This document shows, in pieces, positions 17,383 to 50,618 of a DNA stretch of 64,000 nt (positions are counted from its first letter, which is position 1; every line of letters begins with the position of its first letter). A model generated the notes under the pieces. It saw only the letters and a program-made list of their open reading frames with translations, was not told where the DNA came from and searched no databases. This DNA comes from Tieghemostelium lacteum (lineage: Eukaryota; Evosea; Eumycetozoa; Dictyosteliales; Raperosteliaceae). Location of the stretch: NCBI GenBank assembly GCA_001606155.1, contig LODT01000041.1, forward strand, positions 248,001 through 312,000. The letters run 5' to 3'. Made by a program: the position numbers and the translations under genes.

Positions 17383-20300
17383 TTAGATAACATAGAGTGA
17401 TGATGCAAATACAATATCTCTTTTGATGAGTCTAATTGCTTCTTCCATCTTTTGGAATAATTTGGTATCACCAATGATTCTAGAGCAATTTCTAACCTCT
17501 TGACATGTCTCACCTATTCTAGTAATTGCTCTTACAATGGAACCCTCTAGAACATTGGTTAATTGGCAGATATCATTAAATGGCATACCTCTAGCCCATT
17601 CATAACAAACCTCCATCAAACCAAAATTGAGAATATTTAATTTATCTTCTGATACTTCAAGACCTAATTTATCCTCCAATTGGAAAACTCTTTGTGCAGT
17701 CTTGATTAAGTTATTCTTGGCTTCAATGAGTCTTGGTGTCAATGATGGTTCAGTGGCATCTTTTTCTTGAAATATAAATGTAGATAGGACTGCAACAATC
17801 TCAGATGGCTCCAAAGAAAGGAATGCATTTTCAAAAATCAATTCCGAAATGATTAATTCCTCACAAGTATTGATTTCTCTTGAAACTCTTCCTTTTAGTA
17901 ATACATTATTACCTTGATCAATGTATCCTAATTCTCTAAGAATATCTAAACGAATTTGGAAATTTGGCATTAACTGAAGATTTTCATTAGATACCTTATG
18001 TTGAGCCTCTACAATTTCTTTTTGAATTTCATATTTCTTTTCTGTAATTTCATACTAATATTTTTTAATAACAATTAGTGATCAGGGATAAACAGCTCTA
18101 AAAAATGAACTACTTACATGTTCTTTTAATTTTGGACAGGTATGACATTTTGATTCTGGTATTAGTTTTTCAATTTTCTGAAGTCTATTGTATTTTTGAA
18201 CAAAATTAATATCCTTTAATTTTAATTTATCTATTGGGTCTAGTGCTGGTGGTCCAAGTGGTAGAGGATATTGTTGGATTAATCTCAATAGCTGCTGTTC
18301 CAATGAGTTAATTGCAATATTATCATTGGATTCTATAAGTTTGGTATCGATCTAAGATAATATTAGAATAAATATATATATAGCTTAGAAATAGATAAAT
18401 AATATTGTTATAATTACTTTAATCTTTTCATCACAAAACTTTTTAATTTCAGAACCATCGCTGGTATATATAATGTGTCCATCTGATTGAATTTCAATAT
18501 CATTTTTCAATTTTAATGAGAAAATTGTAAATGTTCTAGTAACTTTGTTATTTGTCTATTTTGAATATAAATGTTAGTTACAATTGTATATAATGGAAAA
18601 ATGAAATACATACATATTGTTTAACAATAGTTGAATCACAATGAATGACAACACCAATAGTATAACTTTGATACTTCATATCAGAGTCATTGGATAAGAT
18701 TAAAACTCTTCCTGGGGAGAAATGGTTTGAACTTGGTAGAGAAAGAATGGTTTTTTGAATTTCTTGATTGAGGTTTTTGGCTTCATAAAAGATATTGAAA
18801 TAGTTTTCAATATCAGGTTCACCAAGGATACATTGAATTTCAGATTGCTTGGTGTAGTTTTGTTTCAGTTTATCAATGTTTTGTTGAATTGATGGAAGAT
18901 CCTTTTGAGTTGAGAACTCAGAGAATGAACGTTTAATCATATCTTCTACCTTGAAATCTTGGACTCTCAAGAGATTTAAAATCATATTATATGTCAAACG
19001 GAATTGAGAGTTTAATTTTGAAGGTACACCTAAAATCATAGATTCAAGTGTACCTGAATCTGGGAAATCTTTCCAATAGGTCAGAATTACAGTACCTACT
19101 TTATCCAAACCTCTACGACCTGCTCTACCAGACATTTGGGTATATTCACCTGGTAACAAATCTCTGAATCCTGAGCCATCATGCTTACGAGTATTTGAAT
19201 AGACTACAGTCTTTGCAGGCATATTTACGCCCATAGCAAAAGTTTCTGTTGCAAACAATACTTTTACAAGTGATTTAGAGAATAGAATTTCAACTAACTC
19301 TTTTACAATTGGTAATAGACCACCATGATGCACACCAATACCACGTTCAAGTAATTCACGAATTTGAAGAATTTGGGGTAATTCTCTATCATCACCTTTC
19401 AATCTAGCCAAAGATTCTTCAATAAATACTTTAATTTGAGATCTCTCTCCATGACTAGTTGTCAAATTGATATTGTTACCTAAACCATAGGCATATTCTT
19501 GACATTTGTTTTTAGAAAAACTAAAAACAATAACAGGTAGTTGTTGTTTTTCTTTGAGTAAGTTAATTAATTTACCCCATCCTTGTTTGGCAACATTACC
19601 AAAGTTATTAAAACCACTACCTCCACCACCTTGTCCTTGACGATTACCACTACGATTGTTATTATTTGATTGCTGATCTTGTTTATAGAATGAGGCACTG
19701 GCTTGATTAAATCCAGTCATTAAAAAGTTTCTATTAGAATCTACAATCTTAAATAAATCATTACTGGGGGTGTGAATGTAATGTTCTAATGGTACAGGAC
19801 GCTTATTAGTACCAATGACATATATTGGCATCTTTTTAGTTCTACCAATCCAATCAGCAAATTCCAATGGATTTGATACCGTAGCTGACAAGAGAACAAT
19901 CTTAACATGTGCAGGTAACATGATAATAACCTCTTCCCAAACTACACCTCTTTCCAGATCATTAAGATAATGAACTTCATCAAAAATTACCCATTCGATA
20001 TCTCTAATCAAATCAGCACCCTTGTAGAGCATAGAACGTAGAATCTCAGTTGTAAGTACTAAACAACTACTAGCAGGACTTACAGATACATCACCAGTAA
20101 TCAAACCAACATCACCAAAAGTATTCTTAAAATCTCTAAATTTCTGATTACTCAAAGCCTTAATGGGACTGGTATAGATTGCTCTAGTCATATTTTTAGC
20201 AGACATTGCAATGGCATATTCAGCAATAACAGTCTTACCAGCACTAGTATGTGCTGAAATAAATACTGATTCACCACGTTCCATATGAACAATAGCCTGC

Positions 20301-21379
20301 TTTTGGAAAGAGTCCAATTCAAATGGATACTCAATTGCAGGATTAGCAATCAACTCTAAGAATGGTGTTGTAATCTCTTTAGTTTCTAAATGTGCCCATT
20401 TCTTTTCTTCAACAGCTGATAAGCTATCCAATTTAGATGTAACTACTGATACATCTTCTACAATCTTTAGTGAAGCGGTTTCATTGATAATTTCATCAAT
20501 AACCTCTTGTTCTTTTATATTCTCTAGAATTTCCTTATTTTGCTCTACTTCTTTAGCATCTTGAGTTTCTTCTTCTTCTTCCTCCTCTTCCTCTACTTCT
20601 TCCTCTTCCTCTTCTTCTTCCTCTTCTACATCCAATTTCAAAAGTGACTCTAGATTAAGAGTTGTATCAGTAGAAGTCTCTGGTTTTTTATCTTGTTGTT
20701 TTTGAATAGTGAAATCTTTAATTTCATTATTTAGACCAGGTACTGAAGTTAAAAGATTTTTTGATTGCCAAAATGATTGCCAATCAATCTTTTGTTTAGA
20801 TTGGTTGATTTTAAAGAGATGATGGTCCTCTTGTTCAACACCTGCTGGTAGAAATGGGAAATTTTGAGCATTTCCTCTGTGGAATTGATCAGGACCTGAT
20901 ATCTCATTCCAAGGTCTTGATAATGATGTTGAATTGGTTGATGTCAATTCAGTGTCAATTGGAATCTCTTTAAATGATTGCATAGAGAGTTGATGTTGAT
21001 TTTGATCTACATCCAATTCAATAGTTTTGTTTGGTTTTGATAATTGAACTTCTATTAGAGATCTCATTGAATCGGATGAGAAATCTATATCTCTACACCA
21101 TAATAGTTGTTCATGACTACTTGTGAATGTCATTTTGAAATCCAAATAATCTTTTCTAATACTATCCATTATATCTGGTAATTGAAATATTGGGAATGAA
21201 CTAGTTGATGATGGTATAACATCAATAGAATCATTAGAATTTACTTGTGGTGATATCTCTGCTTGTGAATTTAAACCAATACTCTTAATCTCCCATTTAA
21301 TTTCGTCATTCTTTATTTCCTTTTTCTTATTTGTTGTCTTTTGCTCTAATTGTTCTAATTCTGAAAAGAATTGATCCAT
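17383..21379 (-). CDS. SKI2-like exosome-cofactor RNA helicase
   Basis: Four exons (21379-18614, 18555-18418, 18351-18118, 18054-17383), all phase 0, give 1269 residues, close to SKIV2L. An N-terminal SKI2 region contains SLSRPWNEISG. A long Glu tract follows near residues 250-268, then the DExH helicase core: SAHTSAGKT near 380, DEVHYL near 466, SATVSNPLEFADWIG near 496, FATETFAMGVNMPA, and GRAGRRG near 756. The C-terminus is the DSHCT domain ending AIRLIKRDIVFASSLYVI. SKI2 unwinds mRNA for the cytoplasmic exosome within the Ski complex. I prefer it to MTR4 because of the SLSR-type N-terminus and the CHTCPKLKEH motif. The chosen ATG is the first in the frame. Confidence 0.93.
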
Positions 21380-28841: not shown

Positions 28842-30404
28842 ATGATGTACCAACAAAATAATCTAATAAATCAAGGAATGATGAACAATCAGCCTCAACA
28901 ACCATATAGAAACCAAAACATGGGAATGAATAATATGGGAATGAATAACATGAATAACATGAATAACATGAACAATATGAACAATATGAATAATATGAAT
29001 AATATGAATAATATGGGAATGAACAATAATATGAACTTACTAAATAACAATGGAATGAATAACATGGGAATGAATAGCAATTTTGCTATGAATAATAGTA
29101 ACATGAATAACAATATGGGGATGAATAATTTAAACAACAATCTATTAATGAACAATAATACCAATAACATGAATAACAATATGGGAATGAATAATTTAAA
29201 TAATAGTTTAGCTATGAATAATATGGCTATGAATAATGGATTGGGTGTTATGAATAATAATATGGGAATGAATAATTTAAACAACAATTTAGCATTGAAT
29301 AATAATAATATGGGAATGAACAAGAATGTTATGAATAATAATATGCAAATGAATAACAATCTTGCTGGTGTTAATAATAGTTTACTTATGAATAATGGTA
29401 TTGGTGCAAATAGTGGAATAAATAATGTAAATCAATTTAATAATCAAAATAATAATATTGCTCAGAGACCCCAACAACAGCCATTACAACCATCACAACA
29501 AATTTTAGGTATGAACAATAACAATAATCTTTATGTACAACAGCAACAACAACAACATCAAAATCAACAACAACAATTTTCATCTGGATTTTCACAACAA
29601 AATAATAGCTCAAATTTAATAATGAATAATAATTTAAATGTAAACAATAGTAACAATATACCAAATTTGATGAATAATAATGATTTTAGTAATTTAATGT
29701 TTCAGGGACATCTTCCTAGTAAATTACCATCATTTAATCAACAACAACCAACTCAATTAAATCAACAGCCACTGGATTTAAATACAATACCACAAATGAG
29801 TAATGAATCTAGAGCACAATATTACAATGTATATTATAAAATTGGAGGTAACGATGGTGGAAAGGTATCAGGATCTACAGCTAAACCAATTTTGATGAAA
29901 TCTCAATTACCAACTGAGAAACTAGCTGAAGTTTGGAGACTTTCTGATATAGATTCTGATGGCAGTTTAGATAGAGAAGAATTTGCACTTGCAATGCATT
30001 TGATCTATGCACTGAAAAGTGGTATTTCATTACCTACTCAACTACCAAAACACCTAATCCCAGAATCTAAACAAGTATATCATATGGGTTCTGCATCCAA
30101 TCAAAATGATTGGCAATCATTCCAACAAGCTAATATCAATCTTAACCAACAACCTCAACAACAACAAGGTTTCATTCAAGCACAATTCCAAAACTCATCT
30201 CAACCCAATTCTAACGCAATAGGTGGAGGTAATAACTTTTTTTCACAAGATCAAACCACACTTAATTTTGTACCTGCTGCCTATGTACCAAAATCCAATG
30301 TACCTGGCTCCGCAATCTCATTTGAACAGCGTGTAGCCTTGTCAAGCGATCTCGATGCTGCATTGGCAAAAAGAGGACAAAATAGAAATAATAATTTATT
30401 TTAA
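28842..30404 (+). CDS. EH-domain protein with Asn/Met-rich N-terminus
   Basis: A 520-residue protein. Residues 1 to about 300 are low-complexity Asn/Met then Gln/Asn repeats. An EH domain (about 320-410) follows, with YNVYYKIGG, MKSQLPTEKLAEVWRLSDID and an intact EF-hand loop DIDSDGSLDREEF. EH domains bind NPF tripeptides in endocytic adaptors, so a role in clathrin-mediated traffic is likely (inference from EPS15/REPS families). The C-terminus carries a short conserved-looking helix, ISFEQRVALSSDLDAALAKR. The prion-like N-terminus may favour condensation, as Eps15 tails do. Confidence 0.9.
   Translation: MMYQQNNLINQGMMNNQPQQPYRNQNMGMNNMGMNNMNNMNNMNNMNNMNNMNNMNNMGMNNNMNLLNNNGMNNMGMNSNFAMNNSNMNNNMGMNNLNNNLLMNNNTNNMNNNMGMNNLNNSLAMNNMAMNNGLGVMNNNMGMNNLNNNLALNNNNMGMNKNVMNNNMQMNNNLAGVNNSLLMNNGIGANSGINNVNQFNNQNNNIAQRPQQQPLQPSQQILGMNNNNNLYVQQQQQQHQNQQQQFSSGFSQQNNSSNLIMNNNLNVNNSNNIPNLMNNNDFSNLMFQGHLPSKLPSFNQQQPTQLNQQPLDLNTIPQMSNESRAQYYNVYYKIGGNDGGKVSGSTAKPILMKSQLPTEKLAEVWRLSDIDSDGSLDREEFALAMHLIYALKSGISLPTQLPKHLIPESKQVYHMGSASNQNDWQSFQQANINLNQQPQQQQGFIQAQFQNSSQPNSNAIGGGNNFFSQDQTTLNFVPAAYVPKSNVPGSAISFEQRVALSSDLDAALAKRGQNRNNNLF
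28940..29015 (+). repeat. Nine-nucleotide tandem repeat coding Asn-Met-Asn
   Basis: Units of the form AAY ATG AAY are repeated about eight times without interruption, giving (NMN)n in the EH-domain protein; related, more diverged units continue to about 29360. Confidence 0.85.
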
Positions 30405-32404: not shown

Positions 32405-35400
32405 ATGAAACAATTACTTTATATATATGTATTTTTAGTATTCATTTTTAAATCTTCCTATAGTTTACCCCCTAAACCAATCAATGCTACACAATGTAAA
32501 TATTGGATCATTTCATACTTTATAATATAATCTAATTATAGAAACCATAGACGATCAGGTGTTGGTTCTAGCTGAAAATTTTAATTTATTATCACGTTAC
32601 CAATCAGATAATGGAACATATTTATTCTGTGCTCCATATGAAGTTGATATACCCTTTTTTTGTGATAATAATAATAATTTAGCATTACTGTATGAATACA
32701 CTTGAATCTACAACTAATCGAATTTCAACTTATTCCTATTCTAATATAAAATTTATCTATTTAAGGAATATAAATGGAAATGGGTTAATACCAATTACAA
32801 AAGACCAATTAACAACATTGACCACTGTAACATCTATGTAATGTATTTTTAATATATAATTGCTATTCAATTAATATTAATTAATCTATTTAAATAGAAC
32901 ATTTGTCAAAATACCTATTGCTATGGAAACTTTTACTTATTTTATGGAGATTCCAAATTTGGATATGTAGGTAGTTTAAAATGAAATAGAGTATTGATCA
33001 CAAATTATTAATCAAATTATTTAGCGAATTAGATACATGTGGAATTACTGCATTTCCAACACAAAACGTTTCTGATAAATATAAAGTCGTCTTACACAAT
33101 AACCCAATTGAAAGTATACCTTCACTCATGGCACCTCCTTTTCTAATAATGTACATATGGGAAATAACAGCCAATGATACTTCCTATTTTAGAAATTTAA
33201 CATATTTTAATGTTGATGAAGAAATAAATTTAACTACATTGTAAGATTTTACTCAATATTTAGATATAAGTATAAATAATTCTAACCAAATTTTGTACAG
33301 CAAATCAATTACAAATAATATACCAGTTTTTACAAAAATTCCACTAATATTGTAAATATTTTCCCATTGGGTATTGCTACATTTAGATTTTTTAACCAAG
33401 CTTCAATAGAACAATTTATTTAGGTCCAAATTTTGATATGGGTACTATAAATCAATTGGGTTTATACAAAACTACAAGAATGTAAATATTATAAATATAA
33501 CTGCTTAAATGTTTAGAACTGACAATTTTTGAATACATAGGGAAGTAATTGATTTATATGATATGTATACATTACCTGGTTTTGCTTGGAAAAATATGAC
33601 AGGCGCTATTTATCTAGAAGTTGATGTAATACCTCCAACTTCTATAATAGATATTTCAAATCAAAATATTGAATCGATGTATGTAATTGAATACCTTATG
33701 ATAATATCTATATTAATCTAATACATTTTTATAGAATTATTAAATCTAAAAATGTACCATTTTCAGTTAACAAACAATTTCCTTTTACTGGTTTAAACAC
33801 ACTAAGAACTTTAATAATTTATAATTGTGATTATATATCATTCCCAACTGAACTTTTACAATACACAAATATATTCGAAATGTAAATATTTAATATTTAA
33901 TATTAATGAATTGATACTAATTATAATATTACAGTGATTTTAGAAATTGTACAATGACAGGACCATTACCAGAACTACAACCTATTACAAAACTCTATTC
34001 ATTGTATGTATTAAATTAAATAGTAAAGATGGGATGAAATATTAATAAACTAGTATTTGAAGAAATCTATCTAATAATAGGTTTAATGGAACTGTTAGTG
34101 ATAAATTTTGTAATATATTTGCTAATTTAAGTTATAATAATCTAACAGGACCTCTACCACAATGTATTGGATGCTATATAAAAAACCCTATGTATAGTAG
34201 TAATTTTGCTGGAAATAATTTCACAAATTATAAAGAGGGTATATTATATCCAAATTGCACAATTACAATTTCCAAAGCTGTTTTATCATCGCAAACTCTA
34301 AAACTATATGGAACCAATTTCCCAATAGATACAAGAGAGATAACAACAGACCCTGTTTTAGTAAATACTGTATATGGTTATAATTCAACACAAATTTCAT
34401 TTTCTTTAAGTACTTCAACATACAACATGTTAAAATCTCATGGATATATTGATATACACTTTAAAACACCAAATATAACAGTTAGATCACCTAAATTTAT
34501 CTTAGAATCACCTATTATTGCGAATATATGGTACACACCTCTATTAGACTTGGGTTATACTTTTCAAGCTGTTGGGTTTAATTTTGGTACTAATTACAGT
34601 GTGGTTAAAGTAGATATCCCTCCATACAAGTGTTTTGTAACCTATTTAGTCGATTATGTAATTAAATGTGATCTCTACAACAAATCCATTCCAGAACAGC
34701 AATACTCTTTCAATTTCAATCTGTCAGGAACTATATCTAAAAAATCTTTTAATTTTGTTAGATCTTATCCTATATTATCATCTATTATTCCAGTACCTGT
34801 TAGTGGAGGTAATATTACAATGTATGGTTACTTTGGTCCCAATCCACAGAATGTTTCAGTTGTATTAACAGTTCAGACAACTATGAATACTAAATATAAT
34901 TGTACTGGTGCTGTTGTAAATTCTACTACAATTGGATGTTATTTAGGTCCTATAGTAATACCAAATGATATTTATTATCAACTAACAATATCTGCAGAAG
35001 TTGATGGTCTTAATACGGTTGGAGTTTATACTATTCTAGATGATAAACTACCTTGTTCAAATAGTGGATGTGGTAATCATGGTGCATGTACAACACTAGG
35101 TTGTGTGTGTTATCAAGGTTTCAGAGGTGCAAAATGTGATTTAATAGCTGACAATCCAAATATTGTTGTGAATTCAACTGGTGCTCATTTTGGTGATGAT
35201 GATGGTTCTTTCACTTTATCAATTGTATCTGTGAGAGAACTGACTCCTTTTGGAGTCTTAGTTTCTGAAATTCCAATTGATAAATGGACTCCAACAGCTA
35301 TAAACAATAACAATGGTGAGGTTCATTCGATTTTTGAATTCAAAAAGAATAATTTCACAATCACAACTGATTTTGAAGAAATCATATCAGAAAAGAATAT

Positions 35401-35962
35401 CACATTTGCTGGAATTGAAATGAACCTTCAACCAGGTTCAATCAAACTCTCAATCACACTTTCAAGTTGGCAATACATATCAAGTGTGAATTACCTTCAA
35501 GTTGTTTTGAATTCAACTGCTGATTTCAATCAATGCGATGAAGATGGTAGTGGAGATAATGGAATTGAAACTGATGGAAACTTGAATTTCCTTCAAATCA
35601 AAAAAGGAGGAAAAGTATTTTATGGTCAATTCTTGAACAAAGTACTCTCAGATCAAAGAGCAACCATTGTTTCAAATCAAGTCCTTTCTGAAGATGATAA
35701 TTCCATTCTAATTGGACTGAACCTCCCACATTGTAATGAATGTGTAATTGATCCTAATTTTTCAGTTCTTTTAGACAGTGAATTCAATAATGATGATTGT
35801 AAATCCAGTTTATTGAAAGATAAACCATGGTTTTTACCTGTGGTAGTTGTCATTCCTATTGTATCAGTTGCCATAATCGGAGCGGCTTCCTATGTGATTA
35901 TTAAGAAAAATCAATTTACCAGATTCCACAACAAATTGCAAAAAATAAGTCACAGTAAATAA
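32405..35962 (+). CDS. ComC-like LRR/IPT/EGF type I membrane protein, array copy 1
   Basis: Eleven exons: 32405-32495, 32551-32689, 32766-32837, 32898-32966, 33025-33240, 33301-33351, 33410-33481, 33541-33678, 33735-33881, 33935-34003 and 34063-35962; the frame is continuous for 987 residues. Signal peptide MKQLLYIYVFLVFIF; LRR region (for example LSYNNLTGPLPQCIGC); two IPT/TIG-like modules (PIIANIWYTPLL…, then YPILSSIIPVPVSGG…YGYFGPNP); one EGF (CSNSGCGNHGACTTLGCVC…GFRGAKC). A ComC supersandwich-like domain follows (ITFAGIEMNLQPGSIKLSI), then a TM helix near the end (VVVVIPIVSVAIIGAA) and a ~20-residue basic tail. Many N-glycosylation sites. A surface receptor or adhesion role is inferred. 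Confidence 0.88.
35063..35785 (+). repeat. Homogenised EGF-supersandwich block, copy 1
   Basis: This ~720-bp stretch is nearly identical at the base level to blocks at 38841-39562, 42546-43265 and 46133-46855, including synonymous positions. Flanking exon sequence is much less alike. Confidence 0.9.
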
Positions 35963-36140
35963 AAAATCTTTCTGTGAGACTTTTAATACCAATTTTAACG
36001 AAAAACTGCAGGAAAGGTTCGATACGTTTTTCTTTTAAAATTTATCTGAAAATATTGGGATGTTCGTGAAATTCCCAATCGACATGACATAATTTTCATT
36101 AAAATTTTAATTATGTTTTCTAGTTTCCTTTGACTATAAC

Positions 36141-39100
36141 ATGAAACTATTTACCTGTGTAATTTTAATTTTATTCTTTTATACCAATAATATAAATGCT
36201 GATTATTCTTTGGCACAACCAATAAACCAATACCAATGTTTGTAAAAAATTCAAAAATCATGACATGATCATCTAATTAGTAAATTAACTTAAAATAACT
36301 TGAAGATAACCAAACTTTATATTTAGCACAACTTTTTGGTATTTTAGATGAATATCCATTAGTAAATGGAACTTATTTATTTTGTGGGTTATATAATAGA
36401 GCAATTACATGCACAAACCAACTATATATAGAGAAAATGTAAAGTTCATTTGAAGAATTAATTAATTATCATTGAAATACTAATTTATTTATTAATAGTA
36501 TATTAAAAGGAAATGGATTAATAAGCATTACCCAAGATCTATTAACAAGTCTCATGACAACTCTATCAATCATGTAAATATTGATATCATACCTCACATT
36601 GATTATGAATAGCAATTAATTTAAATAATATCATAGAGAACTTGATTCTATTCCACTTAGCACAGAAACTGTTGAATATTTATTTTCAAGTCAACAATTA
36701 ACTTCATTGTATGGATATATAGATTATTTTCAAAATTTATTATACATACGATTAACTAATGTTTGTTGACTATCTAGTAAATTTGATACATGTGGAGTTA
36801 CCACACTTCCAACCCAACTTAATAAGTTAACATCTTCAGTTATTCTACATAATAACCCAGTTCAAGTCATACCTGAACTTAGTAGTTTATACTTTCGACT
36901 AAACACTTGGAGGATAACAGCAAATGATACAACTTACATCAAAAATATTTCATATACCAACGTTGAAGCTCAATCTTTGATATCATTGTAGGTATTTAAC
37001 AACTACATACTCTAATAATCAAAAATCTAATTTAACAAAAATCTATATAGTGATTCTATAACAAATACATTTCCAAATTTTGCGGTGACTTCGGAATTTA
37101 CCGAAAGGTATGTACTTAATTGTTCATATATTTTCTAAGAAACTAATAGAAACAAGAAGGACTATTATTTTAGGACCCAATTTCGATATGAGTACATATA
37201 ATAATATTTTCAATTATTCAGGAACTTCATTGTAATTATTTAACCACAAACAAATAATTTGTAAAGTTACTAATCAAATTTAATTTAAAGAGGCATAATT
37301 GATAATTTTGGAACATATAAACTACCATTTTTTCCTGAAAATTTAAGCATAACAGAACTAAATTTAATGGTTGATATTGAAATACCAACAAACTACATTA
37401 ACGTCACGAATACTTCACGTCTTCATTATTTGTAAGTATTTCATTGTATATAGTATTCAAAGTACCAATTAAATTAACCATTCTCTCACTTTAATAGAAA
37501 AATAGTATCAAACAAAGTACCATTCACTTTCAATAATGAATTTCCATTTATAGGTCTAAATAGTCTGGATAGTCTACATTTAGAGAACAATCTTTATTCA
37601 TCTTTTCCAACTCAATTATACCAATACCCAGATTTAAATTATATGTATGTAGTAGTTTACACTTATATTCTGTTACTTTTCACTAACTAAAACAACTAAT
37701 TGTAACACTAATATTATAGTATTTTAAAAAACTGTAGTATGTCAGGACCTCTCCCCGTCTACCCATATAACAATCTTCCATTTCTGTATGTAAAGTAATA
37801 TTTAGAATAATTTCCCAAACTATACTAATTCATTGAATAAAAGTGATTTATCATATAATAAATTGTCAGGGTCAATTAATGGGAGTCTCTATTGTAAACA
37901 TATGAATATTTTCAGTTACAATAACCTAACAGGACTATTACCAGAATGCTTTGGCTGCTATATAAAAAATCCAGTATATGCTAAATATTTTGCTGGAAAT
38001 AATTTTAGTAACTATAAAGAGGGAGAATTATATCCAAGTTGTACAATTACAATATCCAAAGTAATATTATCAATTCAAATGATGAGTTTTTATGGTGAAA
38101 ATTTTCCAATGTTAGGATCAGAGGCTGAAATTGTTCAGTTTCCTACACTTATGATATATCCACAGACCTCTACAGAAATGAGGGTAACACCTATAATGAA
38201 CTTATACAAATCATTGGTAGCCCTTGGATATGTAGATATACACTTTATCACACCCAATATAACAATTAGATCTAGTATCATATTGGAGCCACCAAAGATA
38301 GTTAATGTGTTCTATAGTCCTTTATTGAACATTGGATACACTTTTGGTGTCATTGGGACTAATTTTGGAACCAATTACAGTCTAGTAAAGGTTGATATAC
38401 CACCATATAAATGTATATTATCAGAATTGTATCAATACTCTGTAATTTGTAATATATATGAAAGGAATATACCAGATAAAGAGTACTCCTTTAACTTAAA
38501 TTACACTGGAACAATCATTAAAATGTCTTTTGATTTTGTCAGACTCTATCCAATTGTATCATCTATTATCCCAGTACCTATTAGTGGTGGTAAAGTAACT
38601 ATATATGGGTATTTTGGTCCCAATCCACAGGAGGTAAATGTTACATTACAAATCCATAGTACTACAAAACTTAATTACACATGTGCCAATGCTATTTTTA
38701 ATTCAACTGAAATAACTTGTGTTATTGGTGCTATTTCTTTACAAGAGATTATTTACAATATGGTTATGATTCCTAATGTTGATGGTATAGAAGGTTTGGG
38801 TATCTATAGTATTCTAGATGATACGTTACATTGCTCAAATAGTGGATGTGGTAATCATGGTGCATGTACAACACTTGGCTGTGTGTGTTATCAAGGTTTC
38901 AGAGGTGCAAAATGTGATTTAATAGCTGACAATCCAAATATTGTTGTGAATTCAACTGGTGCTCACTTTGGTGATGATGATGGTTCTTTCACTTTATCAA
39001 TTGTATCCGTGAGAGAACTGACTCCATTTGGAGTTTTGGTTTCTGAAATTCCAATTGATAAATGGACTCCAACAGCTATAAATAATAACAATGGTGAGGT

Positions 39101-39737
39101 TCATTCGATATTTGAATTCAAAAAGAATAATTTCACAATCACAACTGATTTCGAAGAAATCAAATCAGAAAAGAACATCACATTTGCAGGAATTGAAATG
39201 AACCTTCAACCAGGTTCAATCAAACTCTCGATCACACTTTCAAGTTGGCAATACATTTCAAGTGTGAATTATCTTCAAGTTGTTTTGAATTCAACTGCTG
39301 ATTTCAATCAATGCGATGAAGATGGTAGTGGAGATAATGGAATTGAAACTGATGGAAACTTGAATTTCCTTCAAATCAAAAAAGGAGGAAAAGTATTTTA
39401 TGGTCAATTCTTGAATAAAGTACTCTCAGATCAAAGAGCAACCATTGTTTCAAATCAAGTCCTTTCAGAAGATGACAATTCCATTTTGATTGGACTGAAC
39501 CTCCCACATTGTAATGAATGTGTAATTGATCCTAATTTTTCAGTTCTTTTAGATAGTGAATTAAATGATGACAAGTGCAATAATGGCTCATTGAAAGATA
39601 AAACATGGATTCTTCCAGTTGCCGTTGTTATACCCATTGTATCAGTTGCTATTTTAATATCAGCAGCATATGTTTTGGTTAAAAAGAAACAACACATTAA
39701 ATTCCAAAATAAATTGGAAAGATTAAACAAACAATGA
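36141..39737 (+). CDS. ComC-like LRR/IPT/EGF type I membrane protein, array copy 2
   Basis: Same architecture as copy 1. The signal peptide exon begins MKLFTCVILILFFY at 36141. Short LRR exons follow, separated by 50-70-nt introns whose joins I followed through exon 8 without a break; the last exon is 37844-39737. LRR, IPT and EGF segments are recognisable (LSYNKLSGSINGSLY, FYSPLLNIGYTFGVIG, CSNSGCGNHGACTT). The extracellular head differs from copy 1 at roughly a third of residues, while the EGF/supersandwich part is almost the same. The tail (VLVKKKQHIKFQNKLERLNKQ) is shared with copy 3, not copies 1 and 4. Only 178 bp separate it from copy 1. Confidence 0.87.
38841..39562 (+). repeat. Homogenised EGF-supersandwich block, copy 2
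   Basis: Near-identical to the block at 35063-35785. Similarity to copy 3 alone continues beyond the block through the TM and tail codons. Confidence 0.9.
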
Positions 39738-39829
39738 ATAAAATTAGAAAATTCACAAGATATTTACGAGGATGAAAATATCATAGATTTTTTTTGATTT
39801 TGAAAAACATCATTTGCAATAATCTTCGA

Positions 39830-42800
39830 ATGATGAATCTAACTTATTATTTATTATTTATTTATTTATTTGTATATTTAACAAATGGTTATAACACACC
39901 AATGGATCCTACTCAATGTAAGTTCAAATCAATATTGTAAATGTATCTATTGATCTAACAATAGATTTATATAGATGACCAAGCATTGGAAATAGCTCAT
40001 CTTTTCAATTTAAATATGTCAGAGTATTCAATTATAGACGGTAAATACACTTTATGTGGCAACTTTGATAGCACCTTTGATTGTTATAATCAAAGAGTAA
40101 CTAGAATGTATGTAGGCTTTTGAGATTTGTAAATAGAAGGGAAATGATTTCCCTTCAAGACTCTAAATACTAATATTTTAAAATAGAAACCTTTTTGGTA
40201 ATGGATCAACATCAATAACAAAGAGTCATTTAACAACTCTGATGCCCTCGCTGCTCGCAATGTAACTATTATAATATTAAAATTTCAGTGTACAACGAAT
40301 GCAATACTAATGAAATGTTCATAACAGTGAATTCATATCAGTCCCAATCAACGAAGAAACATTCACTTCTTTCTTTGATTCAACTGTATCTAATTTAAAA
40401 TACTTGTATGTTTGATGCTCAGAATCTACATAAACCAATACAATGGGATTAATTATTTATCTAGGGAATTAGATACATGTAATGTTACAAGCTTTCCTAT
40501 AGATACATTTACCTATATAGGATTTAATCAATTGAAACTATTTAATAATCCCATAGAGTGTAATGTACCCATTGATATTATGAAATTTAAAAATCTCACA
40601 CTATGGCAAATTTTCACTAAAAATAGTTTATATATAAAAAATTTTACCTACACCGATTTTATACCTTTTGGAAAATTTGCCTCTACAGTGTATGTATTAT
40701 ATAAATTAGATGTTTGTAACCTATTAACCTTAAAACTATTATCAGAAATCTTATCACAAATAATTTTCCAAACTCCAACCTTAGCATGTATGAAATGTAA
40801 CTATTTATTAAACATGTTAGAAATGATAATACATTTACTCATATTAAATCAAATACTACTTATTTAGGCAATTTATAATGGGTCCAAATTTTAATTTAAG
40901 TTCATATGATAATGTTTTACAATATAAAACAAGCAATTTGTAAATATTATAACTTTTAATTAAATTATATCTAAATTATATCTAATTATATCATTTTAGA
41001 GGAATTTTTGATCTTTTAGGTTTATATTCACTACCTGAATTCCCAGCTGTCAACAAAAATAATGTAGGTGTTATACAGCTTCAAGTGAATATTGAACCAC
41101 AGTCAACATTTATTAATCTAACTGAATATGAATCGTTGAATAGTTTGTAAGTATGAACCATCATTCCTTTATATAAAGCAATCAATATTCTAATCAGGAT
41201 ATAAATAGGTTAATAACAACAAGAGATATACCACTTTCATTGAACAAACAGTTTCCATTTGTTGGGTGCGCTGGTAGACTTACTTATCTACTATTGCAAA
41301 ACTCTGATTTTCCAAACTTTCCTGCTGATATTTTGGGGTGTACATCTATTTCACATTTGTAAATATTAAAGATTAATTTGCATTCAAATTACCATTTTAT
41401 TAATATATGTTGAACCAGGTTATTGATAAATAGTGGAATTGGTGGTACATTACCTGATATTTCAAAGTCTAAATTACAATTAATGTATGCATCTAAGAGT
41501 AGTATAGATTAGAGTACTATATTAACATTTTTGAAAAAACAGAGATTTATCATATAACAAATTTACTGGATCAGTAGATAAAATGTATTGTAATATATTG
41601 GTGAATTTAAGTTATAATAACTTAACTGGTAATCTTCCAGGTTGCATAGGATGTTATCTTAGAAACCCTGATTTTGCTAGAAATTTTAGAGGTAACAATT
41701 TCACAAACTACAAAGAAGGTGAAATCTATCCTCCCTGTACAATCACAATTACCAAATCTATATTATCAATCAACAAAATATCAGTCTATGGAACCAATCT
41801 CCCACCAAGATCAATGAATGAAGTTATTTCTATACCTGCTTTTACGTTACCCCCACAACCATTCAACTCCACATACTTTTCAATGCTTTTAAATAGAAAG
41901 AGTATTTATGACCAATTAAAAGCTCAGGGATATATAGACTTTCATTTTATCACACAAAATGTAACCATAAGAGCACCATTAACTATTGCACCACCTGAAA
42001 TGACAAACATCATTTATTCACCTCTACTGAACATTGGTTACACTTTTAGTGCTTTTGGATTTAATCTTGGTACCAATTACAGTGAAGTTAAAGTTGAAAT
42101 ACCTCCTTATAAAGCATATATAACCAAGTTAACAGATTATAATGTTATATGTGATTTATATAACACATCAATTCCTGAAAAGCAGTATACTTTCATTTAC
42201 AATTACAGTGGTATTGTAGTAAGAAAAGATTTTAATTTTGTTAGATCTTACCCAATTTTAACAGCTGCAACTCCAGCTCCTCTAGCTGGAGGAAATATCA
42301 CTCTGTTTGGTTATTTTGGTCCCAATCCATATAATTTTACAGTTAACATAGTTTCTCAATCATTGGCAATTAATATCTCATGTAATAATGCTGTGGGTAA
42401 TTCTACTACCATTATATGTGAAATAGAACCTGTTAATATCGAAAATATCAACAATTATTTCTTTTTACTATATTATAATGTTGATGGTATACTTGGTATG
42501 GGTTCGTATGGTTATTTTGATACGAATTCATTGACATGCTCTGTAGATGGATGTGGTAATCATGGTGCATGTACAACACTTGGTTGTATGTGTTATCAAG
42601 GTTTCAGAGGTGCAAAATGTGATTTAATAGCTGACAATCCAAATATTGTTGTAAATTCAACTGGTGCTCATTTTGGTGATGATGATGGTTCTTTCACTTT
42701 ATCAATTGTATCCGTGAGAGAACTGACTCCTTTTGGAGTTTTGGTTTCTGAAATTCCAATTGATAAATGGACTCCAACAGCTATAAATAATAACAATGGT

Positions 42801-43454
42801 GAGGTTCATTCGATATTTGAATTCAAAAAGAATAATTTCACAATCACAACTGATTTTGAAGAAATCATATCAGAAAAGAATATCACATTTGCAGGAATTG
42901 AAATGAACCTTCAACCAGGTTCAATCAAACTCTCAATCACACTTTCAAGTTGGCAATACATTTCAAGTGTGAATTATCTTCAAGTTGTTTTGAATTCAAC
43001 TGCTGATTTCAATCAATGCGATGAAGATGGTAGTGGAGATAATGGAATTGAAACTGATGGAAACTTGAATTTCCTTCAAATCAAGAAAGGAGGAAAAGTA
43101 TTTTATGGTCAATTCTTGAACAAAGTACTCTCAGATCAAAGAGCAACCATTGTTTCAAATCAAGTCCTTTCAGAAGATGATAATTCCATTCTGATTGGAC
43201 TGAACCTCCCACATTGTAATGAATGTGTAATTGATCCTAATTTTTCAGTTCTTTTAGACAGTGATTTTAATGATGAAAAGTGCAATTCTAGTTCATTGAA
43301 AGATAAAACATGGATTCTTCCAGTTGCCGTTGTTATACCCATTGTATCAGTTGCTATTTTAATATCAGCAGCATATGTTTTGGTTAAAAAGAAACAACAC
43401 ATTAAATTCCAAAAGAAATTAGAAAGATTAAAAAACAAAAGCTTTGTAAAATAA
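39830..43454 (+). CDS. ComC-like LRR/IPT/EGF type I membrane protein, array copy 3
   Basis: Signal peptide MMNLTYYLLFIYLFVYLTNG starts at the double ATG at 39830. The following LRR exons keep frame as far as traced through exon 6 (including exon 5 with LDTCNVTSFPID and a short exon VNLITNNFPNSNLS); the last exon is 41543-43454. It codes LSYNNLTGNLPGCIGC, two IPT-like modules, an EGF (CSVDGCGNHGACTTLGCMC), the supersandwich-like domain, a TM helix and a basic tail (KKQHIKFQKKLERLKNKSFVK). The EGF has Met in place of Val in CVCYQG. The gap to copy 2 is just 92 bp, so the promoter must be very compact or overlap the upstream gene's 3' end. Confidence 0.86.
42546..43265 (+). repeat. Homogenised EGF-supersandwich block, copy 3
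   Basis: Near-identical to the blocks at 35063, 38841 and 46133. Confidence 0.9.
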
Positions 43455-43554
43455 ACTTGATTCTTTTGAGATGAAAAGGTTCCTTAGAAGAAGATATTTT
43501 TTACAAATTTATTTTATTTTTAAGAATAATATCTGTTCATTTTATTGTGTTTAA

Positions 43555-46500
43555 ATGATTATCCACATATCATTAATTCTAACCTTTTGGTTAATATTAG
43601 TTAGAGCTCAGATATCAGTTGACCCAAGTCAATGTAAGTAAATTTCAACCACCAACTAAATAAAATCTAATAAAACAAAACAGATGCACAGGTTCTACAA
43701 TTAAGCCAAATGTATAACTTGAATATGTCACTGTATCCTATTGAGAATGGAACTTATTTATTTTGTACACCTTACTATATAAACTTTGGTTGTAATGGTG
43801 GTTTTCTAACATCAATGTATGTTTATTTGTTGAATTTGAACTCTGCTAAACTACTAATATATAACTTTAGATATATTAAAGGAGATGGGATAACACCTTT
43901 GACAATAAGCAATATAAATACATTAATGCCAACCCTCACTTCAATGTATTTATTTGAAAGTAATTTGAATTTTAACCTGACTATATATTAATGATATACT
44001 ATTTAATGCAGCTCCTTCACATCTATACCAATACCTACAGAAACATTTGCTTCATTTATGCAAAGTTCAATATTAACTTCCATGTAGGTAAACTATTCAA
44101 AATATTTTTATAATTAATATATTTATAAATTTTATAGAGATCTAGACACATGTAATGTTACGACTTTTCCAACAGAAAATATCAGCTATCAAAAATCAAC
44201 GGTATCTTTATCCAATAATCCGATAAGCAATATTGTAGATGTATCCTTATTTCCAATAATATTAGTGTGGAAAATAATAGCAAATGAAACATCATATTTT
44301 AGAAATTTTTCTTATCCAATTATAGAAAATGAAAATCTAAACACAATGTATGTTTGAAAAGTTTTACAATTTTGAATGTATACTAATATCTTGGTAGTGA
44401 AATTATTTCAAATAACTTTCCAGAAATATCAGAAGTTGATACTATGTAAGATTTAACAATCAAACATATTCATAATCTTATAACTAATTTTTTTTGTAGT
44501 AAAATTATTCCAGGTCCTAATTTTGATATGAGTACCTCACCTAATATAAATTCTTACACAACAACTAAATTGTAATTATTTAACAATATTTAAATTACTA
44601 CTTCTATATTAATTTTCATTTTAGAAACATAACTGATATTTTAGGACAATATACTTTACCAAGTATTCCATTAATATATGGTGTTGTACATTTAACTTTA
44701 AATATTAATGTACAACCACCGACATCATTTTTCAATTTTTCAAACTACTATCAACTATTTAGTTTGTATGTATTAATCATCCTATTTTAATTCAAATCGA
44801 TCTAATTCCTTTTATAGTTCATTAAAAAGTAGAGATTTACCATATGCATATGATCAACAATTTCCATTTGTAAATATTCCACCAGAAATTCGGGATTTCA
44901 GTTTGGAAAACAGCTATTTTAGAGAATTTCCAAGTATTTTATTAAATAACACATATTTACAATTTTTGTAAGTAAATGTATTTGGAAGAAACTGAAACTT
45001 TTTATATTAATTTACCTTAAAGAACTTTAAAAAATTGTGGAATTGAAGGTCCATTACCAAACATTTCAAAAAACAATTTTTTTTTAATGTATGTATAATG
45101 ATCTATATTCTTTTTAAAATTAAATATTTATAAAATATATAGAGATCTTTCTTATAACAAGTTTTCAGGATCTGTGGATACAAGTTATTGTAATATTGAT
45201 GCCAATTTGAGCTATAATAATCTTACTGGACCCTTGCCTGAATGCATTGGATGTTATATAAAAAACCCAATATTGAAAATAAGATATGAAGGAAACAATT
45301 TTTCAAATTATAAAGAAGGTATACTGTATCCAAATTGTTCAATAACTATATCAAAAGCCATTTTATCAATTACAACTCTAACAGTATTTGGTATTAATTT
45401 ACCACTTTATCCAGAGGAAATTTCAACTTCTCCTCCTTTTAATTCATTACCTCGTGTAACTGACATTAACTCATTTTCATTCATCTTTAAATTGGATACC
45501 TATTACACTTTAAAATCACTAAAATTTATTAGTATCCATTTTTATTCTCCAAATATCACAATTAAAGCACCTATAACATTAGCACCACCTATCATCAAAA
45601 ATGTAATGTACTCACCACTACTGAATCTTGGTTATACTTTTAAAGCAATTGGTTTTAATTTTGGATCTCAAATCACTAATATCAAAGTTGATATTCCTCC
45701 CTATAAATGTTTTATAACCGAAATTGATGATAATGTACTTTCATGTAGTTTATATAATAAGTCAATTCCAGAGCAACAGTATACTTTCACACTCAATCTC
45801 ACTGGCTATGTAGTATCCTACAAGTTTAATTTTGTTAGATCTTATCCTACAATATCAACAGTAATTCCTGCACCGTTAACAGGTGGTAACATTACTATTT
45901 TTGGATATTTTGGTGAGAATCCAACTAACTTTTTAGTTAATCTTCTAACATCACCATCTGATAACGTAACATGTACTGGTGTTATTGGTAACTCTACAAC
46001 TGTAATGTGCAATTTAGGACCTGTAACAAACACAATTTCCGTATTTTTCACAGTAGTTCTTAAAATAGAAGTTAATGGTGATAGTGGAATAAGTGTCTAC
46101 AAATTTCTAGATAATACTATACCTTGCTCTATAGATGGATGTGGTAATCATGGTGCATGTACAACAGTTGGTTGTGTGTGTTATCAAGGTTTCAGAGGTG
46201 CAAAATGTGATTTAATAGCTGACAATCCAAATATTGTTGTGAATTCAACTGGTGCTCATTTTGGTGATGATGATGGTTCTTTCACTTTATCAATTGTATC
46301 TGTGAGAGAACTGACTCCTTTTGGAGTCTTAGTTTCTGAAATTCCAATTGATAAATGGATTCCAAAAGGAATCAATACATCAAATGGTGAGGTTCATTCG
46401 ATATTTGAATTCAAAAAGAATAATTTCACAATCACAACTGATTTTGAAGAAATCAAATCAGAAAAGAATATCACATTTGCAGGAATTGAAATGAACCTTC

Positions 46501-47075
46501 AACCAGGTTCAATCAAACTCTCAATTACACTTTCAAGTTGGGAATACATTTCAAGTGTGAATTATCTTCAAGTTGTTTTGAATTCAACTGCTGATTTCAA
46601 TCAATGCGATGAAGATGGTAGTGGAGATAATGGAATTGAAACTGATGGAAACTTGAATTTCCTTCAAATCAAGAAAGGAGGAAAAGTATTTTATGGTCAA
46701 TTCTTGGACAAAGTACTTTCAGATCAAAGAGCAACCATTGTTTCAAATCAAGTTCTTTCTGAAGATGATAATTCCATTTTGATTGGACTGAACCTCCCAC
46801 ATTGTAATGAATGTGTAATTGATCCTAATTTTTCAGTTCTTTTAGACAGTGAATTCAATAATGATGATTGTAAATCCAGTTCTTTGAAAGAAAAACCATG
46901 GATTCTTCCAGTTGCCGTTGTTATACCCATTGTATCAGTTGCAATTATTGGATCAGCAGCATATGTTCTAATTAAAAATAAGAGATTGGGTTTCTATCAA
47001 AAGAAATTGGATAGAATTAAAAATAGCCAAAGTATGGAGAAGGAAAATTCATCAAATGCTAGTGTATTATTATAA
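43555..47075 (+). CDS. ComC-like LRR/IPT/EGF type I membrane protein, array copy 4
   Basis: Signal peptide MIIHISLILTFWLILVRA starts at 43555, 100 bp after copy 3. Short LRR exons follow; the last exon is 45143-47075. Order as in the others: LRR (LSYNNLTGPLPECIGC), IPT-like modules (MYSPLLNLGYTFKAIGFN…, YGY-like FGYFGENP), EGF (CSIDGCGNHGACTTVGC), supersandwich-like domain, TM helix, then a longer tail (KNSQSMEKENSSNASVLL). A local patch in the conserved domain reads KWIPKGINTSNGE where the other three have KWTPTAINNNNGE. The juxtamembrane sequence SEFNNDDCKSS is shared with copy 1. Confidence 0.86.
46133..46855 (+). repeat. Homogenised EGF-supersandwich block, copy 4
   Basis: Near-identical to the other three blocks except for a ~35-bp divergent patch at about 46358-46388. 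Confidence 0.9.
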
Positions 47076-48638: not shown

Positions 48639-50618
48639 TTAAAGTTGTGCATCAATTGATTGATTTCCAAAATCGTCAAATGATTGGGCTTTTGATCGGG
48701 AAAATAAAAAAAAATTAAAAAAATGTTAATATGAAATTGTAAAGTTAAGGTGTGAGTAAAAATAGAACATACTTAAAAATGAATCATCAGTATAGAGTTC
48801 TGAGATACCTTCATTAGCAATTACAGTATCAAAGTAGAAACTCTGTTGATCGTAGTTATCAGTTGGTACTTGGAAGGTTATTTGTCTATTAGGATGAAGA
48901 GGTGACTGAGGAGGTTGCATATTAGATATACTTGGACTATTTGGTATGTTAGTTGGAAGATGATGATTATTATTGTTGTTATTATTGTTGTTATTTGCAT
49001 TCTGATCGTATGGAGAATAGGATGATATCATTGAATTTGGTTCCCAATAAGATACATTAGGATTACCTAATCCGCTATAAATATTATTGTTAAGATGTTG
49101 TTTAGAAGGTGAGAATATTTGATCATTTCCTATATGACCTGTTGGATATATAAATTGGTTGTGGTTATTAGGTGCATTAGTCATTGGAGGTTGAGGAGGT
49201 TGAGCATTATATGAAGTATCCATATCATCACTTGAATTACTGGTATTGGAATTTGGTTGATTGAGTAAGAATACATCTATAGTCTGACCTCCTTCATTAT
49301 GTAAAAATACTTGATATCTACGATTGGGTGGTTCCATTCCTTCGTCTGGATCTGGAACCTCTAATTTAGTGCCTGCAGGTGCCTTAATAGCAATGACAGT
49401 ATCATTTTTCATTCGTTCAATATCACGAAGATCATCATGAGTTACATAAATATATCGTGACGATTTGGAATCTGTCAACATTACCGAGAGATTCTTTTGT
49501 GCCTTTTTTATATTGCTATCTAATGCAGCTTCTTTTTCTTTGAGTTTCTTAATATCTCTCTTGTAGACATCAACATATTTTGGATCAACAGGCATAGTCT
49601 TTACGCCATATGCTTTCCATTGAACACGATTTTTTGAACATTTTTCAATTAGGCCAACACCCTCCAGAACACATGTGACATCGTATATTCTTCTTTTGGA
49701 GATTTCCAATTGATCAGCAGCCACTTTTAAATCAACAATACCCTCAGAGGATTTTCCCATAATCTCCAGAAATTTCTTTGTTAATTGTACCAATGAATTA
49801 TCAAATCTGTTACCAGATTGACTACCCATTAAATCATCACCACTAGCTGATCCTGTTTTTGATTCTGCAAATGATGCTGATTTTGATCTTTTTGTGGCAC
49901 GAGCTGCTGGTTTTTTCTTTGATTGACTTGATACAATGTCATCCATATTTTCATCTTCCTCTTCAGTATCGTTTTCACCATCGTCTGCTGATTGTTGTTG
50001 TTGTTGTTGTATATCACTCATTGAATTGGATCTTTGTGGTCTCTTTCCTGTAACTTTTGATTGCGCTGGCTTCTTTGCCGGCCTTCCTGGTTTTTTGGAT
50101 TTCCCATTCGTTGGGGGTGGTGGTGATAATATCTCCTGTGATGATCCTGCTCCTGGTGTCTCTGAAACATTACCACCACTAGAATTTATACTTCTCAATA
50201 ATTGTAATGAACTTTGAACTTTTTGATCTATACTACTATTACCAGCTATTGTATTATTATTATTTTGACTATTCATTAAAGGTGAAGAAGGCGGAGGTGT
50301 AGAAGGTGCTGTTATTGTAGTTGTAGCTGTCGTTGTTGGTTGTCGTATCTGTTGTTGTTGTGGTTGTGGTTGTTGTTGTTGCTGTGGTTGAGGAAGTGGA
50401 AGTGAAAGTGGTGGTTGTTGTTGTTGTTGTTGTGTAATTTGCAATGGTTTTGTAGATTGCAGAGATGCCATGGATTGTATCTCTGTTAATAAAAATGGTA
50501 ATACACCATTTCCATTATTTAAATTATTATTATTCTGATTGTTTACAATTATATTGGTAATTGTATGATCCATATCTAAACTTTGTTTTGGTTTTCTAGA
50601 TCTGGTAACTGGCATCAT
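48639..50618 (-). CDS. E2F-family transcription factor with AT-hook
   Basis: Exons 50618-48773 and 48688-48639 (phase 1 join) give 631 residues. The winged-helix DNA-binding domain is at about 268-335 (LTKKFLEIMG…ISKRRIYDVTCVLEGVGLIEK). A leucine-rich dimerisation helix follows (YKRDIKKLKEKEAALDSNI), then a marked-box-like region (IAIKAPAGTKLEVPDPDE). The single winged helix plus dimerisation part indicates a DP-partnered E2F, a regulator of cell-cycle genes. A KKPGRPAKK AT-hook near residue 180 lies in the low-complexity N-terminus (Gln/Pro runs). The tiny last exon ends TQSFDDFGNQSIDAQL, an acidic stretch in the position of the E2F Rb-binding tail, though I cannot show it binds Rb. Confidence 0.92.

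What the first reader, a model, noticed from the sequence alone, without database searches (positions are those of the whole stretch)
32405..47075. Four-gene head-to-tail array of ComC-like receptors with diversified heads and near-identical stems
Four complete genes share the order signal peptide, LRR, IPT/TIG, EGF, supersandwich-like domain, TM, short tail. Their LRR/IPT heads differ widely, but ~720 bp coding the EGF and membrane-proximal domain are almost identical at base level, including silent sites. That pattern (variable ectodomain on a homogenised stem, clustered, many N-glycan sites) resembles recognition systems such as the dictyostelid tgr allorecognition genes. A cell-cell recognition or ligand-discrimination array is an inference; the homogenised block is directly visible.
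Basis: partly seen in the sequence, partly recalled or inferred. Interest (0 to 1): 0.82.

Follow-up and report, generated by a model that had tools for sequence, protein, structure and literature searches.

The report
Receptor arrays with homogenised constant stems
Neighbouring surface-receptor genes of a social amoeba keep copying one shared membrane-side "stem" into each other while their outer "heads" stay old and different, and most of the sister clusters checked in the same genome do likewise.

Summary
Four intact 11-exon genes (32405-47075, +) encode signal peptide, LRRs, IPT-like domains, EGF, ComC_SSD (PF22933), TM and short tail. Silent divergence is near saturation in the heads (dS 0.96-1.64) but only 0.08-0.15 in a 237-codon EGF-SSD block. 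Stem silent sites are free to change: between arrays pS is 0.51-0.74, and a dispersed copy of gene 1 diverges evenly along its length (head 0.14, block 0.13). So the block was homogenised by interlocus gene conversion on old paralogues.

It is not local. PF22933 has at least 150 matches in this 23.3-Mb genome. Of 13 arrays examined (46 genes), 12 hold a stem-homogenised pair: 37 of 69 pairs, never the reverse. Three arrays fetched after the pattern was seen all show it. Tract starts cluster at the first EGF cysteine (25 of 31 pairs).

Selection for diverse heads is not shown (dN/dS 0.3-0.7), and recognition is untested. My reading: a variable-head, constant-stem receptor repertoire, the stem perhaps docking a shared partner. 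Closest evolutionary analogues: clustered protocadherins, TLR1/TLR6.

The parts
32405..35962 (+). gene 1 (990 aa): signal peptide, LRR exons, IPT-like domains, EGF, ComC_SSD, TM, short tail; 11 exons
   Evidence: also copied whole to contig C9 (L012)
36141..39737 (+). gene 2 (981 aa), same order
39830..43454 (+). gene 3 (995 aa), same order
43555..47075 (+). gene 4 (992 aa), same order
35066..35776 (+). homogenised block of gene 1 (237 codons, EGF and ComC_SSD; SSD match 35153-35770)
38844..39554 (+). homogenised block of gene 2 (SSD match 38931-39548); with gene 3 the tract runs on nearly to the stop
42549..43259 (+). homogenised block of gene 3 (SSD match 42636-43253)
46137..46847 (+). homogenised block of gene 4 (SSD match 46224-46841); holds a 23-nt patch with ten differences, shared with the C9 copy and not with genes 1-3
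34063..35053 (+). last-exon head of gene 1: final LRR and IPT-like domains, outside the homogenised block

Best explanation
The window holds one of many tandem arrays of ComC_SSD surface receptors in a dictyostelid genome (very probably Tieghemostelium/Dictyostelium lacteum; inferred). Shown by sequence: the LRR/IPT heads are old paralogues with near-saturated silent sites, while the stem (EGF + supersandwich domain, often on into the TM) has been repeatedly overwritten between array neighbours by interlocus gene conversion with both tract ends inside the genes, so that an array carries a near-uniform stem of its own under different heads. Inferred: the proteins are a receptor repertoire with ligand-facing heads and a constant stem that docks a shared partner, because the tails (19-36 aa) are too short to signal alone; the slowly changing stem stays similar enough to go on converting while the heads have drifted out of reach, so constraint and conversion reinforce each other. 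The confidence is for the evolutionary mechanism; for the docking-stem receptor function about 0.35.
For: Head dS 0.96-1.64 against block dS 0.08-0.15; Fisher p 6e-25 or less in six of six pairs. Stem silent sites are not frozen: pS 0.51-0.74 in 78 of 78 between-array comparisons. The dispersed C9 copy of gene 1 diverges evenly: head 0.14, block 0.13, tail 0.19, introns 0.117. In the head C9 is close to g1 only; in the block it is 0.09-0.15 from all four. Both tract ends lie inside genes for most pairs, and 3' and 5' flanks are not alike. All three 2:2 site partitions occur inside the block (1, 4 and 2 sites). Recurrence: 37 of 69 pairs in 12 of 13 arrays, 0 reverse; tract start within 9 codons of the first EGF cysteine in 25 of 31 pairs. 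149 of 150 SSD matches have no stop inside, so the family is kept functional. Short tails in 50 of 50 genes.
Against: GC3 is not consistently raised in converted stems, a mark that was seen in fugu protocadherins. The tree conflict of the block (C9 with g4) rests on one 23-nt patch and vanishes without it. One of 13 arrays (C11) shows no homogenisation, and 32 of 69 pairs do not meet the criterion. Six of 31 tract starts lie elsewhere. The flanks of the C9 copy are only 70% and 64% alike, below its introns. No data on partner, ligand, expression or strains; the GLMP likeness is a modest fold match (TM 0.50).
Confidence: 0.88

Rival explanations
1. Neutral by-product: conversion acts on whatever stretch of neighbouring copies is still similar enough. 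The stem is simply the last such stretch because its protein changes more slowly; nothing favours identical stems, and there is no functional constant region.
For: Stem pN/pS is lower than head pN/pS (medians 0.22 and 0.57 over 31 pairs), so the stem would stay convertible longest. Members with diverged stems coexist in the same arrays.
Against: Stems differ widely between arrays (dN up to about 0.7 between single genes) yet stay uniform within them; the 5' edge recurs at the EGF start. Neither result excludes this rival.
Confidence: 0.45
2. Prey or microbe sensing: LRR receptors without kinase, like plant LRR receptor-like proteins, whose heads bind bacterial or fungal ligands and whose stems bind a co-receptor.
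For: LRR part closest by profile to plant LRR receptor ectodomains; clusters, TM, short tails.
Against: No ligand, no induction data; the LRR match is by fold family, which many kinds of receptor share.
Confidence: 0.3
3. Allorecognition: a tgr-like system in which different heads tell kin from non-kin.
For: IPT-like domains by fold, clusters, intact genes, and the published comparison lists tgrB1 as group 4 only and tgrC1 as D. discoideum only (PMC4931340 Table 3), so other species may use something else.
Against: No between-strain data; head dN/dS below 1; head-to-tail arrangement instead of a divergent pair; the homogenised part is the stem, while tgr recombination sites fall also in the binding region (PMC12324515).
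Confidence: 0.15
4. Assembly artefact: reads of one stem were placed or merged into several copies.
For: 454 reads with a roughly 700-nt near-repeat are a known hazard; reads cannot be inspected here.
Against: Copies have private differences (7, 9, 4 and 16 single-copy sites in g1-g4), mostly silent for g1-g3; stems in other arrays range from pS 0.04 to 0.29; the published assembly, if this is it, used fosmid maps and primer walking (PMC4931340).
Confidence: 0.03
5. No conversion: silent sites of the stem are constrained, or the array is a very recent duplication with fast or relaxed heads.
For: Antisense open frames of 70-107 aa overlap the stem end in all four copies.
Against: Head silent sites are near saturation; stem silent sites are near saturation between arrays; the C9 copy shows equal silent rates in head, block and introns.
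Confidence: 0.02

Closest known systems
Clustered protocadherins of teleosts (fugu; PMC1852091, passages read)
   Same: Tandem cell-surface genes; membrane-side 3' part of each gene made nearly identical by regional gene conversion, N-terminal part different; homogenised sequence differs between subclusters.
   Different: Cadherin domains in vertebrates; raised GC3 there, not here; positive selection reported for EC2-EC3 of mammals, not shown here; no LRR, IPT or SSD.
TLR1/TLR6 and avian TLR1A/B (PMC3125219, passages read)
   Same: LRR receptors in tandem; conversion keeps the membrane-side part alike while the ligand part diverges; authors propose co-evolution with binding partners.
   Different: Converted part includes a large cytoplasmic TIR domain; two genes rather than many arrays; here the tail is 19-36 aa.
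tgr genes, tgrB1/tgrC1 (PMC12324515, parts 1-3 of 6 read)
   Same: Dictyostelid TM proteins with IPT-type domains, large clustered family, recombination.
   Different: Divergent pair with shared promoter; no LRR or ComC_SSD (recalled); recombination sites also in the binding region; no stem-limited homogenisation described in the parts read.
ComC and the ComC_SSD family (PF22933)
   Same: SSD well over cut-off with EGF before it.
   Different: comC is listed as group 4 only in PMC4931340; orthology and function of comC were not tested here.
Plant LRR receptor-like proteins such as Hcr9/Cf (recalled; search listing only)
   Same: Clustered LRR proteins, TM, short tail, conserved membrane-side part (recalled).
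   Different: No IPT, EGF or SSD; a different kingdom; a resemblance of working principle only.

Membership tests
ComC_SSD proteins (PF22933) | SSD match over the curated cut-off | tested here: met
   105-110 bits against 24 in all four window genes
ComC_SSD proteins (PF22933) | orthology or functional equivalence to D. discoideum comC | not tested
   no dictyostelid comparison genome was available
tgr family | IPT/TIG domains | tested here: inconclusive
   Pfam TIG E 0.29 in one window gene; fold match to Plexin IPT3-6 E 3.2e-9
tgr family | tgrB1/C1-type divergent pair sharing a promoter | tested here: not met
   all four genes are on + strand, head to tail
tgr family | allelic polymorphism matched between strains | not testable with these tools
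   one genome only
Regionally converted receptor clusters (protocadherin or TLR1/6 kind) | low silent divergence in the membrane-side part, high in the outer part | tested here: met
Regionally converted receptor clusters (protocadherin or TLR1/6 kind) | raised GC3 in the converted part | tested here: not met
   stem and head GC3 similar, e.g. window 0.19-0.22 against 0.14-0.22
Regionally converted receptor clusters (protocadherin or TLR1/6 kind) | positive selection in the outer part | tested here: inconclusive
   pairwise dN/dS 0.31-0.67; dS near saturation in the array, small counts in recent pairs; no site test run
Plant-type LRR receptor-like proteins | LRR ectodomain, TM, short tail without kinase | tested here: met
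   a likeness of layout, not membership
Plant-type LRR receptor-like proteins | signalling through a co-receptor kinase | not testable with these tools
   needs binding experiments

The most novel reading that the evidence does not exclude
A second, tgr-independent recognition repertoire of social amoebae: on the order of a hundred or more ComC_SSD receptors in many arrays, each array with its own constant-region stem kept matched by gene conversion so that all its different heads plug into one array-specific partner. This would be a germline variable-head, constant-stem receptor system in Amoebozoa.
Probability: 0.25. Interest if true: 0.85.

Novelty: new variant of a known kind. Interest (0 to 1): 0.6.

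Why it matters
Domain-limited gene conversion in receptor clusters is known from vertebrates. Here it recurs in 12 of 13 arrays examined of one amoebozoan superfamily, usually with the same 5' edge, with array-specific stems and an unlinked copy as a natural control, so one genome is a replicated experiment on how constant/variable receptors arise. It also gives a concrete candidate repertoire for what dictyostelids outside group 4, listed as lacking tgrB1/tgrC1 orthologues (PMC4931340 Table 3), might use to sense kin or prey.

Tried and rejected
Rejected: a very recent duplication (head silent sites near saturation); silent-site constraint (C9 control); unequal crossing-over as sole cause (tract ends inside genes and unlike flanks); tgr membership as stated. 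Tried with little yield: GC3 (no consistent signal); tree conflict in the block (significant only through one patch); pairwise windows for positive selection (none clearly above 1); NCBIfam on the LRR part (three weak chance-like matches, none to member 1). Literature: ten searches; in the listings of 8, 9, 42, 45, 46, 67 and 78 I saw no paper on ComC_SSD arrays or on conversion of their stems. The listings show 10-20 papers each, and the library holds open-licence papers only.

Limits: 13 of 29 clusters and 50 of at least 150 matches (46 genes in arrays, 4 single) were examined. The first ten arrays were picked from the hit list by score and position, the last three from those with 3-4 members, not at random. 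C30 was held in part (2 of 3 genes) and the fifth, oppositely oriented member beside the C29 661k array was not held. Gene models are mine, without transcripts. The 9-codon count and the 0.6 ratio were set after looking at the data. Pairs within an array are not independent.
Full report
SETTING. The window is G000:C34:248001-312000 of a 23.33-Mb, 43-contig genome. Size and gene content fit Dictyostelium (Tieghemostelium) lacteum, published as 23.4 Mb in 54 gap-free contigs from 454 reads, fosmid maps and primer walking (PMC4931340, passages). The species name is an inference.

THE FOUR GENES. A splice model trained on long frames of the window, then corrected by comparing copies, gives four 11-exon genes without internal stops: g1 32405-35962, g2 36141-39737, g3 39830-43454, g4 43555-47075. 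They stand head to tail with 178, 92 and 100 bp from stop to next start. Each has a signal-like N terminus, LRRs spread over small exons, and one last exon with the final LRR, IPT-like domains, EGF, ComC_SSD, TM and a short tail. A profile of the four LRR parts matches solved plant LRR ectodomains (GSO1 E 2.4e-45, FLS2). Pfam finds ComC_SSD at 105-110 bits (cut-off 24) but no TIG over cut-off in these genes. The fold model of the g1 last exon (pLDDT 75.1, pTM 0.42) finds the IPT3-6 fragment of Plexin A1 first (E 3.2e-9, low TM-score) and Met fragments within the top ten, so IPT is supported by fold rather than by sequence. Sequons number 23-29 per protein.

THE BLOCK. In the codon alignment the heads are near saturation (exons 1-10 dS 1.21-1.64; last-exon head 0.96-1.54), the 237-codon block has dS 0.08-0.15 and dN 0.002-0.021, and the end of the protein returns to 0.46-1.58 except g2-g3 at 0.06. 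Fisher tests on synonymous changes give p from 6e-25 to 3e-37, and identical runs of 107-190 nt exceed the longest of 1000 codon shuffles (43-63 nt) in each of six pairs. In 50-column bins identity is 46-68% just upstream, 92-100% inside (78-82% over g4's patch), and falls off after g1 position 35790; beyond the stops it is 16-52%. The 5' flanks are 47-55% identical. The copies are not merged duplicates: 7, 9, 4 and 16 sites are private to g1-g4, and inside the block all three 2:2 partitions occur (1, 4 and 2 sites), which suggests more than one exchange.

WHY CONVERSION. (a) Stem silent sites can change: between the first members of 13 arrays stem pS is 0.51-0.74 in all 78 comparisons. (b) A dispersed intact copy of g1 lies on C9 (L012), 89% over 3812 aligned nt. 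Against g1 it shows dS 0.14 in the head, 0.13 in the block, 0.19 in the tail, and intron divergence 0.117: a simple duplicate diverges evenly. The match reaches about 110 bp upstream and 100 bp downstream, but those flanks are only 70% and 64% alike. (c) In the head C9 is close to g1 alone; in the block it is 0.09-0.15 from all four, so the array's stems share a history that its heads do not. A 23-nt patch with ten differences is shared by C9 and g4 against g1-g3. Block trees put C9 with g4 (100/99; C9+g1 rejected, AU p 0.005) while head trees put C9 with g1 (100/100); without the patch the block is unresolved, so this conflict is one event. (d) Tracts end inside the genes on both sides, which unequal crossing-over alone would not give. 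Against: GC3 is not consistently raised.

HOW GENERAL. PF22933 has at least 150 matches here, all over the cut-off, 149 of 150 without a stop (a capped list, matches rather than genes). Eighty-six of the 150 lie in 29 clusters by an 8-kb rule. I examined 13 clusters with 46 genes, plus 4 single genes. With the criterion stem pS below 0.6 of head pS and Fisher p below 1e-4, 37 of 69 within-array pairs are stem-homogenised, in 12 of 13 arrays, and no pair shows the reverse at the same cut-offs. The C11 pair is the exception. Counts by array range from 6 of 6 (window, C24, C34 65k) to 1 of 21 (C21 138k). Three arrays (C34 65k, C14, C2) were fetched after the pattern was known; 6 of 6, 1 of 3 and 3 of 3 of their pairs meet it. 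Members that are not homogenised have stems near saturation, for example C29_676059 and C14_353509. In the 31 most clearly homogenised pairs, from nine arrays, the tract starts within 9 codons of the first EGF cysteine in 25; three C24 pairs start inside the stem, and three C34 65k pairs reach 100-154 codons into the head. The 3' end varies from before the TM to near the stop. Control: a TIG-only tandem array on C37 (three long frames and one shorter) shows no block, the lowest 60-codon pS in six pairs being 0.38; a recent TIG pair on C24 is alike throughout. One diverged control array is little, but it speaks against homogenisation of just any tandem receptor.

SELECTION. Head dN/dS is 0.31-0.49 in the window array at near-saturated dS. 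For the recent g1/C9 pair it is 0.67 in the LRR exons, 0.53 in the last-exon head and 0.60 overall, below 1 with p 0.002, against 0.21 in the block. In the recent pair C21_217767/222534 parts of the head have pN at or above pS on small counts. Heads evolve fast under weak average constraint; positive selection is neither shown nor excluded. Median pN/pS in homogenised pairs is 0.22 in stems and 0.57 in heads (31 pairs).

WHAT IT DOES. Shown: TM proteins with LRR/IPT heads (in the window array), a stem, and tails of 19-36 aa after the TM in 50 of 50 genes, too short for a signalling domain. Several other arrays have heads with DUF7034/DUF7035 instead, so one kind of stem carries more than one kind of head. 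Inferred: signalling needs a partner, and the stem, uniform within arrays and different between them, is the natural docking part. The stem model (pLDDT 74.5, pTM 0.71) finds the luminal domain of GLMP first (E 3.9e-6, TM 0.50, rmsd 6), then two Man38A entries and a lysosomal peptide transporter entry, 8r8q_B. That GLMP is a short-tailed accessory subunit of the transporter MFSD1 is recalled, and the likeness is of fold only. Whether heads bind kin, prey or other ligands cannot be decided here.

KNOWN SYSTEMS. The nearest evolutionary likeness is the clustered protocadherins of fugu, where the 3' part of variable exons is over 99% alike among paralogues and the converted regions differ between subclusters (PMC1852091, passages), and TLR1/TLR6, where conversion keeps the membrane-side part alike while the ligand part diverges (PMC3125219, passages). 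The tgr genes recombine too, but tgrB1/C1 form a divergent pair and their recombination sites fall also in the binding region (PMC12324515, parts 1-3 of 6). The 2016 genome paper counted 76 IPT/TIG, 15 EGF-like and 7 proteins with both in D. lacteum; the SSD family was not among the domains that I saw counted there. I saw no description of these arrays in my search listings (open-licence library only).

VERDICT. A real, strong and widespread case of stem-limited concerted evolution in an amoebozoan receptor superfamily: a known kind of process in a new and unusually well replicated setting. Recognition function is an open hypothesis.

Noticed in passing
stem model ma69593a0e8cc (window 35054-35788): In the library of predicted viral structures the ComC_SSD stem matches two pandoravirus proteins (A0A2U7UC85, E 6.7e-8, TM 0.59; A0A0B5J2G4, E 4.7e-5), viruses of amoebae; a shared fold or an exchanged domain.
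   Followed up: no
L012:363-4123 (contig C9): Whole-gene dispersed copy of window gene 1, intact, 89% alike.
   Followed up: yes
C21:217767 and C21:222534 (L024, L025): Recent whole-gene duplicates (head dS 0.07, stem 0.05) whose tails differ more (dS 0.26) than head or stem, as if one tail had been replaced.
   Followed up: partly
C37:93000-105500 (L035, L036) and C24:365500-372500 (L037): Tandem TIG genes without SSD, ending in EGF and a hydrophobic C terminus: one diverged array, one nearly identical pair. TIG has at least 150 matches in the genome (capped list).
   Followed up: partly
L014, L016, L018, L026, L028: Other ComC_SSD arrays carry heads with DUF7035 and DUF7034 (and DUF7743 in L026), so one stem type serves several head types.
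   Followed up: no
window 7511-9400, 12339-13730, 18578-21379, 28842-30404, 48726-50618, 61236-62930: Ordinary neighbours by Pfam: FF/WW protein, ERG4/ERG24 sterol reductase, Ski2/Mtr4-like helicase, EH-domain protein, E2F factor, WD40 protein.
   Followed up: no
window 39455-39763, 43160-43483, 46748-46993, 35677-35889 (- strand): Antisense open frames of 70-107 aa over the stem end in all four copies; probably a by-product of the sense sequence.
   Followed up: no
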